64,000 nucleotides of DNA from assembly GCA_030528025.1 (NCBI GenBank), contig JAUMZP010000002.1, positions 1 through 64,000 of the forward strand. Direction: 5' to 3'. This DNA comes from Candidatus Saccharimonadota bacterium (GTDB lineage: Bacteria > Patescibacteriota > Saccharimonadia > Saccharimonadales > Saccharimonadaceae). Below the pieces are notes generated by a model that had not been told where the DNA came from, made no database searches, and worked only from the letters and a program-made list of their open reading frames with translations. Made by a program: the position numbers and the translations under genes. Below, piece after piece: positions 4,608-12,219 of the stretch. Positions within the stretch are counted from its first letter, which is position 1. The number at the start of each line of letters is the position of its first letter.

Positions 4608-4824
4608 ATGCATAATAACTATGAATTATGGTTATTATTTATAATAAATAGTGTTGGAATGTCGCGCAGATAATAGCATGGTGTATCGTAGACAAGAAGG
4701 TGCAATGGCAAGTTCCTTAATATGTAAAAATAACAGCACAATACGATAAAACGGCGAACATAACGAAAGGAGTGGATGGTATAATACCACCATAAGATGA
4801 CAATAACGAGTAGTCATAAACAGC

Positions 4825-4830
4825 TATAAT
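4825..4830 (+). promoter_or_regulatory. -10 box of the type III R-M operon
   Basis: TATAAT is followed after exactly six bases (AACGAT) by ATA 4837, where the Mod reading frame begins. This copies the leaderless TATACT-N6-ATG layout seen elsewhere in the window. A second TATAAT lies at 4780-4785. Confidence 0.55.
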
Positions 4831-4836
4831 AACGAT

Positions 4837-6612
4837 ATAAAACAAGAACAGATTAATAAACTCAAACAACTCTTCCCCGAAGCAGTCACCGAAGGCAAGA
4901 TTGACTGGCAGAAGCTCCAGGCGACACTAGGCGAGGCGGTTGATTTGGGTGAGCGCTACGGCCTTGGCTGGAAGGGTAAGAGCGACGTCTTCGCTACCAT
5001 CCAAGAGAAAACCGTCCAGACGCTCCACCCCGATCGGGCGAATTCCGTCGATTGGGATACGACGGGCAATATGTTTATTGAGGGTGATAACCTGGCGGCG
5101 CTAAAGATTTTGCACAAGGCGTATTACGGCAAGGTCAAGATGATTTATATTGATCCACCCTACAACACTGACAATGATTTCATCTACAACAACAACTTCA
5201 AGCAGACACGCCGTAGTTATGAAGCAGAGGCGGGTATCACCGATGATGAGGGTAACGTTGTGCGGGATGACGGCCTGCGCACCAATACCGGCGGGCATAA
5301 GCACAGCAACTGGCTGAATATGATGTATCCACGTCTCTTCCTGGCACGCAACCTGATCCGCCAAGATGGCGTCATCTTCGTCTCGATCGACGACAACGAA
5401 GTCCACAACCTTCGCTTGATGATGAATGAGATATTTGGAGAGGAGAATTTTGTAGCGTAGTTAGTTTGGGAAAGGGCTTATGCACCAAAGAATGACGCAA
5501 AGTATGTTTCGAATAGTCATGATTATGTATTGATGTATGCGAGGAGTATAAACGAATTTACTATTGGGCGCCTAAAGAGAACAGATGAAGCAAACGCACG
5601 CTACTCAAACCCAGACAGCGACCCAAGAGGAGTTTGGAAGCCGAGTGATTTATCTGTTAAAACTTATAGTGCAGCTAATGACTACTTGATTACAACGCCC
5701 TCTTGGCGTGTAATCGAGACTCCAAGATAATCGCATTTGGTTTGGACCAAATGGTGATAGTGTTCCAGCAATCAAAAGATTTTTGTCGGAGTTAAAGTAC
5801 GAAGGGATGGCTCCGACGTCAATATTGTTTTATAAGGATGTTGGTCATAGTCAAGAAGGGGCTAAGGAGGTCGTATCTCTGTTTGATGAAAAAGGAAGTT
5901 TTGATGGCCCGAAACCCGTTAGGTTTATAAAGCGTTTAATAACTATGTCGGGTGCAAAAGATGAGGACATTATCCTCGATTTCTTCTCCGGTTCTGGTAC
6001 AATCGTTCATGCTGTTGCCGAACTTAACGCCGAAGACGGTGGTAATCGCCGCTGGATTTGCGTGCAGTTACCTGAGCTGACTGACGAGAAGTCGGAAGCG
6101 TATAAAGCCGGCTATCGCACTATCGCCGACATTGCTCGTGAGCGTATCCGTCGGGCGGGCGCCAAAACCGTGCTGACCAGGAGGACAAGCTAGCGTCTCG
6201 CAATGTTCCGCTTAACCTTGGTTTTCGGGTGTATCGGGTGGGTCATAGTAATTTCAAGCAGTGGAACGAGCTAGTTTCTGACTCGGAGGAAATTCGCCAG
6301 CAGGCGCTCGCCAACCTCGATCCGCTGGAGGAAGGCACGACTGATGACGACCTGTTGGCTGAGCTCCTGCTCAAGCGTGGTGTCTCGCCGCTGGTGCAGA
6401 TTGACCAGCATAACGGTTTTTGCCTCATCCCGTCCGAAAAGCTCGCCATCTGCTTGGTGCACTTCATGACAGAAGAGCTATTTGCGACTATCCTTGCTAC
6501 CAAACCATCATCCATTATCCTCCTCGACCGAGCCTTCGGTGACGACATAAATCTAAAAGTAAACCTACTCCTGCAAGCCGAACGGCAAGGTGTTGAGGTG
6601 GAGGTGGTGTGA
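4837..6612 (+). pseudogene. mod: type III restriction-modification DNA methyltransferase Mod, broken
   Basis: Reading across the breaks gives a type III Mod subunit (EcoP1I/EcoP15I class), the SAM-dependent adenine methyltransferase and specificity subunit. Visible are the N-terminal QINKLKQLFPEAVTEGKIDW, catalytic IDPPYNTDN near 5150, the SAM motif LDFFSGSGT near 5985 and a conserved C-terminal half ending at 6612. Lesions: no ATG/GTG/TTG at the expected start (ATA 4837); TAG at 5458-5460 where the family usually has Gln (NFVA-x-xVWERAYAP); missing sequence plus frameshift near 5725 between the VIE-TP and NRIWFGPNG segments; another frameshift near 6180. The stop overlaps the next gene as ATGA. 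The family is certain. As written, the gene cannot make full-length Mod. Confidence 0.88.
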
Positions 6613-7571
6613 TGAATGCACGAGATTACGGTAAAAAATTAGAGGAGCTTCAACATCAATCTAAGACAAAAGTTGAGGCTATTGAGTCAACATATAACTC
6701 TGTTTTAGAAATTAAGAAAAAAATTGAAGAATACCTAGACTAGGCTACCGAACTCAACAATAAAATCACCGACGAAGAAACCAGTCTTCAGGTAATATTA
6801 GATCAAGCGGTTGAGCTAAAATCTGAAATTGTTGCTGTAAAATCTAATGCAGAAACTGTATATAAAGAAATTCGTATTTTTCGTGATAATGCGGCTGGCT
6901 ATATTAAAGATATTGAAAATTTTAAGGATAATGCAGAAAATGTAGCTCAAGGAATTCAAAACAAATATGATGAAAGTGTTGAATTTAAAGAAAAGATCCA
7001 AGAAATATGTAGCATAGGCACTAAAGGAGCACATGCCAATCATTTTGTAGAAAGACGGAATAAACTCAGACGGATGTTTATAACATGGATGATAGCATCT
7101 TTGACGTTTCTTATAGCGACCGTAATTTTAGCTATACATTTTATTACACCAATGGCAGACAATATGAAGCATTCTCTTGACATAAACTTAAGTGCGCTTT
7201 TACTGCGTTTTAGTATATTGACACCTACAACCTTTGCTTTTGTGTATTCATTGAATCAATACTCTCAGGAAAGGCGTTTGTATGAGAAATATGCGTTCAA
7301 AGCTATAAGTACCTATTCTATCGAGACATCGCTAAACACCCTGATACGTTCTACCGAAGGGCTATCCGACTAAAGTAGAGATAAAAAGATTACCGATTTT
7401 GCGATTTGCTCATTTAACTCTATATATCAAGAACCGATAGAAATTAAAAAGGAGCGATGGTCTTTCGGTGTAGGTAATAAAATATTGAAATTAACGGCCG
7501 AAACAAACCAAACCGTAGGAAAAATCCATCAAGATGTTGACAACCTAAAAGATTTTGCAAAACAGGAATAG
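6612..7571 (+). pseudogene. coiled-coil membrane protein inside the R-M operon, interrupted
   Basis: One frame of 320 codons runs from ATG 6612, which overlaps the mod stop as ATGA, to TAG 7569-7571, but is interrupted by TAG 6741-6743 and TAA 7371-7373. The conceptual protein is a long charged coiled coil (about residues 5-145, K/E/I/N rich), two membrane helices (about 155-177 and 195-217) and a cytoplasmic tail ending in a further amphipathic helix (TVGKIHQDVDNLKDF). I do not recognise the family. Its place between Mod and the HEPN gene suggests an accessory of the defence operon, perhaps a membrane sensor or effector. It is clearly more AT-rich than mod and res, so it may have been inserted. 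Both internal stops are one C-to-T change from Gln codons. Confidence 0.7.
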
Positions 7572-8358
7572 GTGAACAAGATGAGCGGTAGCAGAAATAA
7601 TAAATATACAACGAAACTGCGATCAAGGCTTGACGAAATAGAAAAGCTTGAATCGATATCTATGGTAATGCGAGATCAAGCGACTCAGTGCCTTGAAACA
7701 GTACTAAATAGCTCGCAGCTCACATACAATGATAGGAAAATAATTAAAAATAAAATTGCTCTTCTCGAGAACATAAAAGAAAAATCTATGAGGGAGCAAT
7801 TTAGAGTAATATACTCTCAAATGTATGTTTTGGCTGTCTCATCGTTAGAGGCAATTCTGAAGGATTATTTTGTGGATAGTTTTAATGATAAAACAGACAT
7901 CAATATAGAAAATAAGAAACTAAATGAAATAGAAGTAACGATAAGGGATATTATTTGATAACGAGCTTAATTTTGACAATAAACTGGGAGCTCTAATACT
8001 CGAGCGTGACAAACCCAACTTTCAAGATTTAAAATCTATACTGAATAATTTTAAGAATTATTTTAATAAAGAAATTGAATTAGAAGGTAATCTTCAGAAG
8101 AAGTTATGCTTTTATTTTGAGATAAGACACTTGCTGGTACATAAGGGTGGTGTGGTCGATAAAAAGTCTATTAATAGTACTAAGGTTTTGGACGCAAATA
8201 TAAAGAACTACAAAGCAGGTGATACTGTAGAGATCAAATCATCTGACTGGATCGATATGAAGCAATCGTTTCTAACTCTACTGGATATGTTAACAAGAGG
8301 AAAAGCTGCCGCGGAGATAGACGGTGGATCTTTAAAGGACAGCAGGAAGGGTGCTTGA
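7572..8358 (+). pseudogene. HEPN-domain protein (MAE_28990 / RiboL-PSP-HEPN-like), frameshifted
   Basis: A helical protein of about 260 residues in two frames. The first part (7572-7958) has long charged helices and LAVSSLEAILKDYF; the second resumes in another frame as LFDNELNFDNKLGAL and carries IRHLLVHKGG at about 8122-8154. The R-H-x-x-x-H core (8125-8142) is the Rx4-6H signature of HEPN domains, whose arginine and histidine form an RNase site in many defence and toxin proteins. A one-base-scale frameshift lies near 7950. The start is GTG 7572 or ATG 7581. It lies between the coiled-coil gene and res, whose start follows nine bases after the stop. HEPN is likely from the motif and helical context; the subfamily is a guess. 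Confidence 0.7.
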
Positions 8359-8366
8359 TTGGTTTT

Positions 8367-11083
8367 ATGAAACTAAAATTCGACCCCAACCAACAATACC
8401 AGCTCGACGCCATCAATGCGGCGGTGGATGTATTCGTTGGCCAGTCAAAAGATAGTGACAGTGCGACTCGCCATATAGATCAGGATGGGCAGCTAGGTTT
8501 GGAGGCGATAATCGCCAGAGGAAATAGCTTGGTGCTGGACGCGGCGCAGATTACTGAAAATATGCGCACGGTGCAGCAGCGGAATGATATCTTGCCAGAT
8601 AAGAATGATTTAATCGATGAGTCTAGTGTAGTAGAGAATTTGCCTCATGGTATGAATTTCTCCATCGAGATGGAGACTGGCACGGGTAAAACATATGTAT
8701 ATTTACGGACAATTCATGAGTTACATCAGCGCTACGGCTAGAAGAAGTTCATCATCGTGGTGCCGAGTATCGCTATCCGCGAAGGAGTATTAAACAACCT
8801 AGAGATCACTAGGGAGCATTTTGCCGATCTCTATAATAAGCCAGAGATGAACTACTACGTGTGGGATAGCAAGAAGACTGGCCAAGCGCATGAGTTCGCC
8901 ACAAATGATACGTTACAGATTATGGTGATTACTATTGATAGCTTTGCCAAGGCACAGAATGTGATGAATCGGCAGAGTGACTATGGGCGGACGCTCGATT
9001 TCATCAAGGCTACTCACCCAGTAGTTATTCTCGACGAGCCGCAGAATATGGAGACGGATACGCGGCGGAATGCTATTGCCAGCCTTCATCCGCTGTGTAC
9101 GTTGCGCTATAGTGCCACGCACAAGCACTTATATAATTTGCTGTATCGGCTGACTCCGGTCGATGCTTATGATAAAGGCTTGGTCAAGAAGATCGAAGTA
9201 CATAGTGTTCAGAGTGAGGATAATTATAATGATGCGTATATTAATGTGCTGTCGCTGGAGCGCCAGTCGAAGACGCGTTCGTTTGCTAAAATCGAAGTAG
9301 ATGCGAGCGACGAGTACGGCTTACAACGCAAGGTCATCAAGGCATTTCCGGGCGATGATTTGGAGTCTAAGACAGGGCGCTCGGCTTATGCTGGCTATTA
9401 CATCGAGTCGATCAATCACGGCGATAATTGCGTGGAGTTTAGTAATGGTAAGGTGGTTTACGTTGGTCAGCGTGATGAAAGTCTACACGAAGATATTATT
9501 AAGCGACAGATTGAGCTGACGATTGATGATCACTTTGATAAACAGCGCCAACTGGGGAGCAACGTCAAAGTGCTGAGCTTATTCTTCATCGATAAAGTCA
9601 TGAACTATCGTGAATATACGGCAAGAAAGGTAAATTCGCCAAGTGGTTTGAAGAAGCCTACGCCAAGGTGGCATCTAAACCGAAATATGCTGGTGTGATG
9701 GACGGCCTGCTAGCGAGCGAGGTGCACAATGGTTACTTTGCGTCGGATAAAAATGGCCAGTGGAAGGATTCCCGCGACACTAAGGGTGAGGGTGGCCGCA
9801 CCAAGGATGACGACACTGCCTATGGCCTCATTATGAAGGACAAGGAACGCTTGTTGGATGTCAATGAGCCACTGCGATTTATCTTTAGTTACTCGGCACT
9901 GCGTGAGGGCTGGGATAATCCTAATGTATTCCAGGTATGTACGCTTAACGAGACGTCAAGCCGGATGAAGAAGCGCCAAGAGATTGGGCGAGGACTGCGC
10001 TTGCCGGTCGACGCTAATGGGCAACGAATATATAGCGATAGTATTAATGTATTGACGGTAGTAGCTAATGAGAGTTACGCTGATTTTAGTCGCAAACTCC
10101 AGACGGAAATTGAGGAAGAGACAGACATTAAGTTTAGTGGGCGAATCAAGAATCGAGATAATCGGCAGGCGGTTAGATTTCAAAAGTCACGGGCGCTTGA
10201 CCCAGCTTTCAAGGAACTATGGGATAGGATTAAGCATAAGACAACCTACCGAGTAGCAATTGATATAGAAAAATTAGTGACGGAGGCGGCTGATGAATTA
10301 GCACAAGTTACCATCAGTCGACTGCACATTGCCGAGACGAAAGTGTTGATTAACTCTATGAACAACGATAGCGGCTTTATGGTGCGCGAGACTAATTTTA
10401 ACGCATATGCGGTGCGCCAAACTGAGGTGAAGATACCAAATCTCTTAGCAGATATTCAACGCCGAACGCAGATGACTCGTCGCCTTATCTTTGATGTACT
10501 TGATAAAGCACAAATGTATCACACGATACCGGTGAATCCACAACAGGTTATTGACGAGGCGGTTCGGGCGATTAACCGTGCAAAGCAACGTTTGGCAGTA
10601 GATGGTATTAGATATTACAAAACAGGTGAATGCTATGATATGGCGCTGTTCAAGAATGATGAGCTGCAAGCATATCTATATGATGCGGCGATGAAAAGTG
10701 GGGCAATTGCAGTGACTGAGCGTGCTAAAACTATCTACGACTATGTAACGGTTGATTCAGAAGTAGAGCGCGAATTTATGCAGTCGCTGGAGGATAATGC
10801 CAGCGTGAAGTTCTATATCAAGCTACCAGGTTGGTTCAAAATTGATACTCCAGTTGGTAAATATAATCCAGATTGGGCAGTGGCGTTTGATGGTGATAAG
10901 CGGATTTACTTTGTGGCGGAAACAAAAGGCTCAGATGATATTCGTGATAACCACTTAAGCAGTAGCGAACGCAGTAAAATAACCGCGGCTCGCCGGCATT
11001 TTGCAGAAATTCATGTACTATATACAGCGCCAGTGCGGAGTTTGCAGAGCGTGATTAGAAAATTATCGGATAGATACCAGTAG
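8367..11083 (+). pseudogene. res: type III restriction enzyme Res subunit, interrupted
   Basis: Conceptually about 905 residues of a type III Res: a superfamily 2 translocase with a C-terminal nuclease that cuts DNA with Mod. Seen are MKLKFDPNQQYQLDAI at the start, Walker A ETGTGKT near 8680, the DEPQN Walker B box near 9037, SATH near 9111, the helicase motif REGWDNPNVFQ, and a PD-(D/E)xK-like end with NPDWAVAF followed by VAETKG. TAG 8739-8741 replaces what is probably Trp before KKFIIVVPSIAIREG. A frameshift near 9617 splits the helicase core at KGKFAKWFEEAYAKVASK. I start at ATG 8367; a frame back to 8355 overlaps the HEPN stop. The family is certain; the copy is inactive as written. Confidence 0.88.
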
Positions 11084-11151: not shown

Positions 11152-12156
11152 TTATGATTTATCCACTAGTTTCGTTAGCTTCACGCCACCGTACATCCAG
11201 TGGTCGGCGCCGCGGTATGCGCCGGAGTTGTTGACTTCGCCGCGCTGGGTGTAGATTAGGCGGGTGAGGGCAGACAGGCGCCAGGTTTTGCCGCCGTAGG
11301 ATACTTCGCGTGGGCCGGCTACAACGGCAGTAGTGGCTGAGTCTTTGATGAAGCAGATGGTTGCGCCCTTTTCGACCCTCTTTTTGTAAAAGCTAAAGCG
11401 TTGGTCTTGCTGATGCGTGGTGGTAACGGCTTCGAACGAATCAGCTTTGCTAGTGGATTGAGCTGGCTTGGGGTAAATCTGCGTGCCATCAAGGGCGAGC
11501 AGCAGCCGCTGGATAAGATACTCATCGAGCGCAAAGAACTCGCTCCGGCCAATGCGGTGTTTGCTAAAGACTTCGTGTAGGAGCTGCTCCTTCTTGTGGT
11601 AATTATCTACCTCAATAGCAACCAGCCGCTGCAGCCCAGTGATATTAGAATAGCCGTTAGATTCGAGATGCTGCATGCGCGCCTCAAAGCGTTCAGTGCT
11701 GGTCTTGCCAATCTTGACCAAGCCACCAATGGCACTGGTCATAACATAAATTACTCCGCGCGACTCGGGCTGTGTAGTTGGCTGCGGTGCTGGCTGGGGC
11801 GCCGGGGCTGGCTTGGGTGTCCGAAGAATAATGTGAGTGACTGGTTGTGTAATGACTGTCGTTTTGTTCTCGTACCCGGATTTGTTGGGCTTGCAGATTT
11901 GCTTGGTGCCAGATTTACCTTGCTATTTGATAGTATCGGTATAGCCATACGCACCCGATTCGCCTTCGTAATGTGTCTCGAAGGGTATTTTTTCGGTTGA
12001 GCAGTCTGTGTAGGTAACGACGGGTGGCTTGGGCGGTGTAGTAGCTGCATGATGTTGCACAGAAGTAGCACCTGCCGATACAAGCGCACTAGCAACGAAG
12101 CAAATACTGGCGATAACACCAACAGACTTCTTCGAAATGTTTGTGATCGATTTCAT
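11152..12156 (-). pseudogene. secreted G5-domain plus GIY-YIG (T5orf172) nuclease-like protein, amber-interrupted
   Basis: A single 335-codon frame is broken only by TAG (plus-strand CTA at 11923-11925). Residues 1-30 form a signal peptide (basic start, VGVIASICFVASALVSAGA). A G5-like domain spans about 48-110: paired strands, QGKSGTKQ right after the amber, and VITQPVTHII. A Pro/Ala/Gln linker follows, then a GIY-YIG domain of the T5orf172 type: GVIYVM, GLVKIGKT, the catalytic-type Glu in KKEQLLHEVF, and SEFFAL. The C-terminal block with VSYGGKTWRLSALTR and WMYGG recurs after such nuclease domains. The start is set by AAAGGA and a promoter upstream. The downstream half alone could be made from ATG 11742. 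The domain calls are good; an extracellular nuclease role is inference. Confidence 0.68.
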
Positions 12157-12191: not shown

Positions 12192-12219
12192 AGTATAATA
12201 CGCTCATGCTTATTTTCAA
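12192..12219 (-). promoter_or_regulatory. promoter of the G5/GIY-YIG gene
   Basis: On the minus strand TTGAAA (12219-12214) and TATACT (12197-12192) are 16 bp apart. AAAGGA follows shortly before ATG 12156, giving a leader of about 30 bases. Confidence 0.6.

What the first reader, a model, noticed from the sequence alone, without database searches (positions are those of the whole stretch)
11152..12156. Secreted protein joining a G5 domain to a GIY-YIG nuclease domain
One frame, broken only by a TAG, runs from signal peptide through a G5-like domain and Pro/Ala/Gln linker into a T5orf172-type GIY-YIG domain with its usual C-terminal block. G5 domains are extracellular and bind cell-surface sugars or zinc; GIY-YIG domains act on DNA. 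An exported nuclease would suit an epibiont that needs nucleotides, or an antagonistic effector. The combination is new to me.
Basis: partly seen in the sequence, partly recalled or inferred. Interest (0 to 1): 0.6.

Follow-up and report, generated by a model that had tools for sequence, protein, structure and literature searches.

The report
Broken fusion of secreted-module and defence nuclease
In this Saccharibacteria genome the front end of a small secreted protein has become joined in frame to a DNA-cutting antiviral-defence gene of a known candidate type, but the joined gene carries a stop codon in the middle, is found in no relative and sits in a decaying defence island, so it is most likely a dead or dying one-off and not an exported nuclease in use.

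Summary
One frame, cut by one TAG at codon 78, encodes a signal peptide, a weak Cys-containing G5-like domain, a Pro/Ala/Gln linker, a T5orf172 GIY-YIG domain and a C-terminal domain. The interpretation mostly fails. The C-terminal 203 residues are a member of PADLOC candidate defence family PDC-S57 (E 3.9e-50). Its C-terminal block has the RAMA fold (CcrM, Z 8.5), so the kind is GIY-YIG–RAMA, already suspected of being type IV restriction. Homologues across Patescibacteria and other phyla are standalone genes starting a few codons before the GIY strand; none of about 100 inspected copies has a signal peptide or G5. The N-terminal 131 residues resemble the signal-peptide/G5/linker module that in this family normally ends in DUF3761. 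TAG is the window's commonest stop, and none of the 47 tRNA genes found is an amber suppressor. The only restart codon (ATG 11742) removes β1 and the GIY tyrosine. The convergent type III R-M genes also carry ambers and frameshifts. The nuclease frame has stayed open along an unusually long branch, so the amber looks recent. A formerly working exported fusion is not excluded.

The parts
12192..12219 (-). sigma-70-like promoter match TTGAAA-16-TATACT upstream of the secreted ORF
   Evidence: 10 of 12 positions, but no more sites than in shuffles (2 found, 1.9 expected); suggestive only. An AAAAGGA ribosome-binding-like site lies just before ATG 12156.
11923..12156 (-). 77-codon ORF actually readable from ATG 12156: signal peptide plus first part of the G5-like domain, ending at the amber
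12067..12156 (-). predicted signal peptide (codons 1 to about 30)
   Evidence: +3 n-region, hydrophobic core at residues 12-26; no dedicated predictor available
11827..12003 (-). Cys-containing G5-like domain (residues 52-110)
   Evidence: Pfam G5 E 0.002-0.008, below cut-off; two G010 proteins, one an independent hit at E 8.9e-14; profile match to canonical G5, E 1e-4, 58%
11923..11925 (-). in-frame amber stop (TAG, codon 78) inside the G5-like domain
   Evidence: TAG ends 24 of 45 long ORFs of the window; no CUA anticodon among 47 tRNAs
11764..11820 (-). Pro/Ala/Gln-rich linker (residues 113-131)
11467..11763 (-). GIY-YIG nuclease domain of the T5orf172 type (residues 132-230), catalytic motif residues present
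   Evidence: (PDC-S57 E 3.9e-50); AlphaFold2 pLDDT about 90; folds like HIGLE, Slx1 and I-TevI
11740..11742 (-). only in-frame ATG/GTG/TTG downstream of the amber before the domain core (Met139); starting here loses beta-1 and the GIY tyrosine Y137
   Evidence: Y137 invariant in 29 aligned sequences
11155..11403 (-). C-terminal RAMA-like DNA-binding domain (residues 252-334)
   Evidence: CcrM 6pbd Z 8.5 over 77 residues, MPND 7ydw Z 7.0; sequence family; weak RAMA Pfam hit in one member
4816..6612 (+). type III R-M methyltransferase (mod) pseudogene: amber at 5458 plus two frame changes near 5720 and 6160
   Evidence: against the intact 613-aa protein of G077; PADLOC MTase_III E 6.8e-88
8334..11083 (+). 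type III R-M restriction subunit (res) pseudogene: amber at 8739 plus a frameshift at about 9620-9656
   Evidence: against the intact 946-aa protein of G077; RE_endonuc E 8.2e-34

Best explanation
This is a lineage-specific gene chimera, now a pseudogene or close to it. A PDC-S57 gene (GIY-YIG nuclease plus RAMA-like DNA reader, an intracellular, probably modification-sensing restriction-type defence protein) lost its own start and became joined in frame, exactly at its start codon, to the signal-peptide/G5/linker front of a small secreted protein of the kind that in this family normally ends in DUF3761. A later amber in the G5 part cut the product. What can be made today is a 77-residue exported fragment, and at best an inactive nuclease fragment from ATG 11742. 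Shown: the frame, the amber, the absence of the fusion in the relatives read, the family of the nuclease, the broken R-M genes next door, the lack of an amber-suppressor tRNA in the assembly. Inferred: the DUF3761 ancestry of the front half, the order of events, and that nothing useful is made now. Mechanism of the intact family (inferred): the RAMA domain binds modified or foreign DNA and the GIY-YIG domain cleaves it, with the GIY tyrosine activating water.
For: Frame and amber. TAG is the commonest stop in the window, and no CUA tRNA occurs among the 47 tRNAs of a 98.6%-complete genome. PADLOC PDC-S57 covers 132-332 from profile position 2-4. Homologues start at Met two or three residues before G[VI][IV]Y with an upstream stop, and none has a signal peptide or G5. 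Secreted or membrane-anchored G5-linker-DUF3761 proteins are common in the family, and two in G010 have the same Cys-G5. The convergent mod and res genes are broken by ambers and frameshifts relative to intact copies in G077. The same spot in G077 holds unrelated genes, so gene content here turns over. The structure model puts beta-1 at 133-140, which a start at Met139 (ATG 11742) would remove. RAMA-like fold of the C-terminal domain. GIY-YIG-RAMA proteins are named as putative type IV systems in PMC11037411.
Against: The nuclease half has no stop or frameshift in 203 codons and keeps its catalytic motif residues. It lies on a long branch (1.59 against a median of 0.25) with pN 0.32 and pS about 0.9, so it was coding until recently. 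The join falls neatly at the domain edge without junk, as expected if a fused protein was selected. One amber in one assembly could be a strain polymorphism or an error.
Confidence: 0.72

Rival explanations
1. The fusion is or recently was a working exported nuclease: the signal peptide and G5 domain carry a GIY-YIG-RAMA enzyme to the cell surface, where it degrades DNA for nucleotide supply or harms the host bacterium. The amber is a strain variant, a sequencing error, or very recent.
For: Open, constrained nuclease frame on a long branch, as after a change of role; junction exactly at the domain start; simulated drift gives P(no stop) 0.14 at 0.1 and 0.024 at 0.2 substitutions per site, so the loss is recent.
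Against: No relative has the fusion; neighbours are broken too; the family is intracellular; no amber suppressor.
Confidence: 0.17
2. Two functional units: the short secreted G5 fragment and an independently translated GIY-YIG protein starting at ATG 11742.
For: 196-codon ORF from ATG 11742; a GGAG motif lies about 11 bases upstream.
Against: The start would remove beta-1 and Y137, which is invariant in 29 sequences; all homologues start upstream of that strand. No promoter-like site was found there.
Confidence: 0.06
3. Amber readthrough or recoding gives some full-length protein in the cell.
For: The frame continues with recognisable sequence on both sides of the TAG; mod and res also have ambers.
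Against: No CUA tRNA; TAG ends most long ORFs; mod and res also have frameshifts, which recoding would not explain.
Confidence: 0.05

Closest known systems
PDC-S57 (PADLOC phage defence candidate, single gene)
   Same: Residues 132-332 match over nearly the whole profile; same GIY-YIG plus C-terminal domain layout
   Different: No own start codon; fused to a signal-peptide/G5 front; interrupted upstream
GIY-YIG-RAMA putative type IV restriction enzymes (noted in PMC11037411)
   Same: GIY-YIG domain followed by a RAMA-like fold
   Different: Only predicted; no activity or modified-base sensing tested; no secreted member described in the passages read
Secreted or anchored G5-DUF3761 proteins of the same family (e.g. 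L241, L248, L013, L035)
   Same: Signal/TM segment, G5 or Cys-G5, Pro/Ala linker
   Different: DUF3761 tail replaced by the nuclease; own genome has no DUF3761 hit
T5orf172 homing endonucleases and Odn of phage ICP1
   Same: Same GIY-YIG subfamily, modular fusions to DNA-binding domains (PMC8263062, PMC10448857)
   Different: DNA-binding part is CapR, DUF723 or RepA-like, not RAMA-like; phage-encoded; no phage record matched here

Membership tests
PDC-S57 / GIY-YIG-RAMA defence candidates | Match to the PDC-S57 profiles | tested here: met
   E 3.9e-50, 3.6e-34 and 6.1e-20
PDC-S57 / GIY-YIG-RAMA defence candidates | GIY-YIG motif residues (Y of GIY, K-I-G, R, E) present | tested here: met
   Invariant Y137, K148-I149-G150, E206; R160 nearly invariant
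PDC-S57 / GIY-YIG-RAMA defence candidates | RAMA-like C-terminal domain | tested here: met
   CcrM Z 8.5 over 77 residues, MPND Z 7.0; Pfam RAMA only weak in one member of ten
PDC-S57 / GIY-YIG-RAMA defence candidates | Complete translatable gene with own start | tested here: not met
   Start lost, frame continuous with an upstream ORF that holds an amber
PDC-S57 / GIY-YIG-RAMA defence candidates | Location among defence genes | tested here: met
   Convergent with broken type III R-M; several homologues lie near restriction or other defence-type genes, judged from sequence
PDC-S57 / GIY-YIG-RAMA defence candidates | Nuclease and anti-phage activity | not testable with these tools
   Needs protein
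G5 domain (PF07501) | Score over Pfam cut-off | tested here: not met
   18.8 of 23 bits
G5 domain (PF07501) | Profile similarity to canonical G5 of the genus | tested here: inconclusive
   hhalign E 1e-4, probability 58%; AlphaFold2 unconfident there, with no homologues of that part in the alignment
Exported nuclease | Uninterrupted signal peptide plus nuclease in one frame, kept in relatives | tested here: not met
   Amber in the only copy; no relative has the fusion

The most novel reading that the evidence does not exclude
In this Saccharibacteria lineage a DNA-reading defence nuclease (GIY-YIG-RAMA) was re-purposed as a surface or secreted effector by capture of a signal-peptide/G5 module, evolved fast in that role, and has only just been lost in the sequenced strain (or is intact in sister strains).
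Probability: 0.2. Interest if true: 0.6.

Novelty: new variant of a known kind. Interest (0 to 1): 0.3.

Why it matters
It shows a defence nuclease joining a secretion module and then breaking, in a tiny epibiont genome whose restriction island is decaying. If a working copy existed in sister strains, it would be a rare case of an intracellular defence enzyme turned outward. More useful in general, the structure model supports reading PDC-S57 as GIY-YIG-RAMA, which gives that otherwise undescribed candidate a testable mechanism.

Tried and rejected
Amber recoding: rejected, since no CUA tRNA was found and TAG is the commonest stop. Conserved fusion in relatives: none in the homologues read; the few long upstream frames (L167, L170, L172, L177, L182, L188) have no signal peptide or G5 by eye. 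N-terminal half as query in 198 genomes gave mostly chance hits; only L013 was a real relative. First genome-contig scan with the full protein found no relative. Search for the DNA around the amber in viral contigs: none. Phage records: none; plasmid records: three weak or partial hits without the N-terminal part. Viral contigs gave only two weak GIY-YIG matches. PDB by sequence: no relevant hit. Foldseek alone gave no E below 0.001; the second look gave RAMA and GIY-YIG matches with Z about 6-8.5, and the report's fold claims rest on those. dN/dS could not be quantified because synonymous sites are saturated. The window copy differs at 6 of 47 otherwise invariant positions, but so does the equally distant L132 at 7 of 48, so this shows divergence, not decay.

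Full report
What is there. On the minus strand from 12156 to 11152 one frame encodes 334 residues with a single internal stop, TAG at codon 78. The order is signal peptide, Cys-containing G5-like domain (residues 52-110), Pro/Ala/Gln linker (113-131), GIY-YIG domain (132-230) and a C-terminal domain (252-334). T5orf172 is well over its Pfam cut-off; G5 is below its own (18.8 of 23 bits), but the match spans the TAG. The genome is 1.03 Mb, 98.6% complete, and its relatives are Candidatus Saccharibacteria. The protein has one copy in the genome.

The C-terminal half. PADLOC recognises residues 132-332 as PDC-S57, a candidate single-gene phage defence system (E 3.9e-50). Homologues occur in 22 of 393 genomes of the order, a count that includes shorter or domain-only matches, and in many other phyla. 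In the homologues read the protein starts a few residues before the GIY strand, with a stop close upstream; none has a signal peptide or a G5 domain. A few have longer open frames upstream, without recognisable secretion features by eye. The AlphaFold2 model is confident for 133-334 apart from a linker near 230-250. In the structural second look the GIY-YIG part matches HIGLE (Z 7.1), Slx1 (6.7) and I-TevI (4.1), and the C-terminal domain matches the RAMA domains of CcrM (Z 8.5) and MPND (Z 7.0) at the top of the list. Z values below 8 can mean only a common arrangement; here the GIY-YIG sequence match and the agreement of two RAMA structures support them. The same C-terminal domain is also fused to an HSDR_N-type nuclease domain (L006) and, judged from sequence, to a DUF262/DUF1524-like protein (L008) and an HNH-like protein (L055). 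PMC11037411 already mentions GIY-YIG-RAMA fusions as possible modification-sensing type IV restriction enzymes and states that GIY-YIG enzymes activate water with a tyrosine, most likely that of the GIY motif. The sensing of 6mA by RAMA is disputed (PMC9963953), so which modification is read, if any, is open.

The N-terminal half. Two proteins of G010 share the Cys-G5 layout and end in DUF3761. A wider search shows signal/TM-G5-linker-DUF3761 proteins across the family. The window's front half therefore looks like this module with its tail exchanged. That ancestry is an inference: similarity is low (22-27% identity) and the profile match to canonical G5 is only 58% probable.

Can it be translated? 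TAG is the most used stop of the window (24 of 45 long ORFs). All 47 tRNA genes over threshold were typed and none has a CUA anticodon; the assembly is not complete, so this is strong but not absolute. After the TAG the first in-frame start is ATG 11742 (Met139). It lies inside the first strand (133-140) and after Y137, which is invariant in 29 aligned sequences, so the restart product should be inactive.

Surroundings. The convergent genes 4816-11083 are a type III R-M pair broken relative to intact relatives: mod by an amber and two frame changes, res by an amber and a frameshift. An intact pair with about 81% identity over res, and 97% over the longest mod fragment, is in another genus (G077). 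In G077 the same spot between res and the polysaccharide deacetylase holds three unrelated genes. So this is a turning-over, decaying defence island, and the interrupted nuclease fits that picture.

How old is the break? The window's nuclease half sits on an end branch of 1.59 against a median of 0.25, with non-synonymous difference about 0.32 and saturated synonymous sites, yet no stop in 203 codons. Under simple simulated drift this would be unlikely beyond 0.1-0.2 substitutions per site. So the frame was protein-coding until recently. The clean junction, without junk between linker and domain, mildly favours a fused protein that was once selected. This is the main evidence against calling it a mere accident.

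Verdict. Observation confirmed; the exported-nuclease idea is not supported for the gene as it stands, with a residual chance that a working fusion existed or exists in sister strains. Membership: the C-terminal half is a PDC-S57 (GIY-YIG-RAMA) member by sequence and fold but fails the test of being a complete gene; the G5 assignment is probable, not proven.

Noticed in passing
window 4816-11083 (+): Type III R-M pair (mod, res) recently broken by ambers and frameshifts; intact, closely related pair in another genus (G077, L078/L098), suggesting horizontal transfer followed by decay.
   Followed up: yes
L006, L008, L055, L036: The RAMA-like C-terminal domain of PDC-S57 is fused to several different nuclease types (HSDR_N, DUF262/DUF1524-like, HNH-like, GIY-YIG) in Saccharibacteria: a modular type IV-like restriction reader.
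   Followed up: partly
L084:5866-6477: A PDC-S57 gene inserted inside a ribosomal protein operon, right after a secY-like gene (G216).
   Followed up: no
L239, L240, L241, L242, L244, L248, L013, L035: A family of secreted or membrane-anchored G5 (or Cys-G5) plus DUF3761 proteins in this bacterial family; function unknown.
   Followed up: partly
L045 and L057 (G293): Another PDC-S57 copy interrupted by stops and split between frames: decay of this gene is not unique to the window.
   Followed up: no
L017, L031 (G000:C3 about 199-200 kb): Two adjacent G5 proteins in the same genome with other C-terminal domains (one resembling a transglycosylase/resuscitation-factor domain), showing that G5 fronts carry different tails here.
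   Followed up: no
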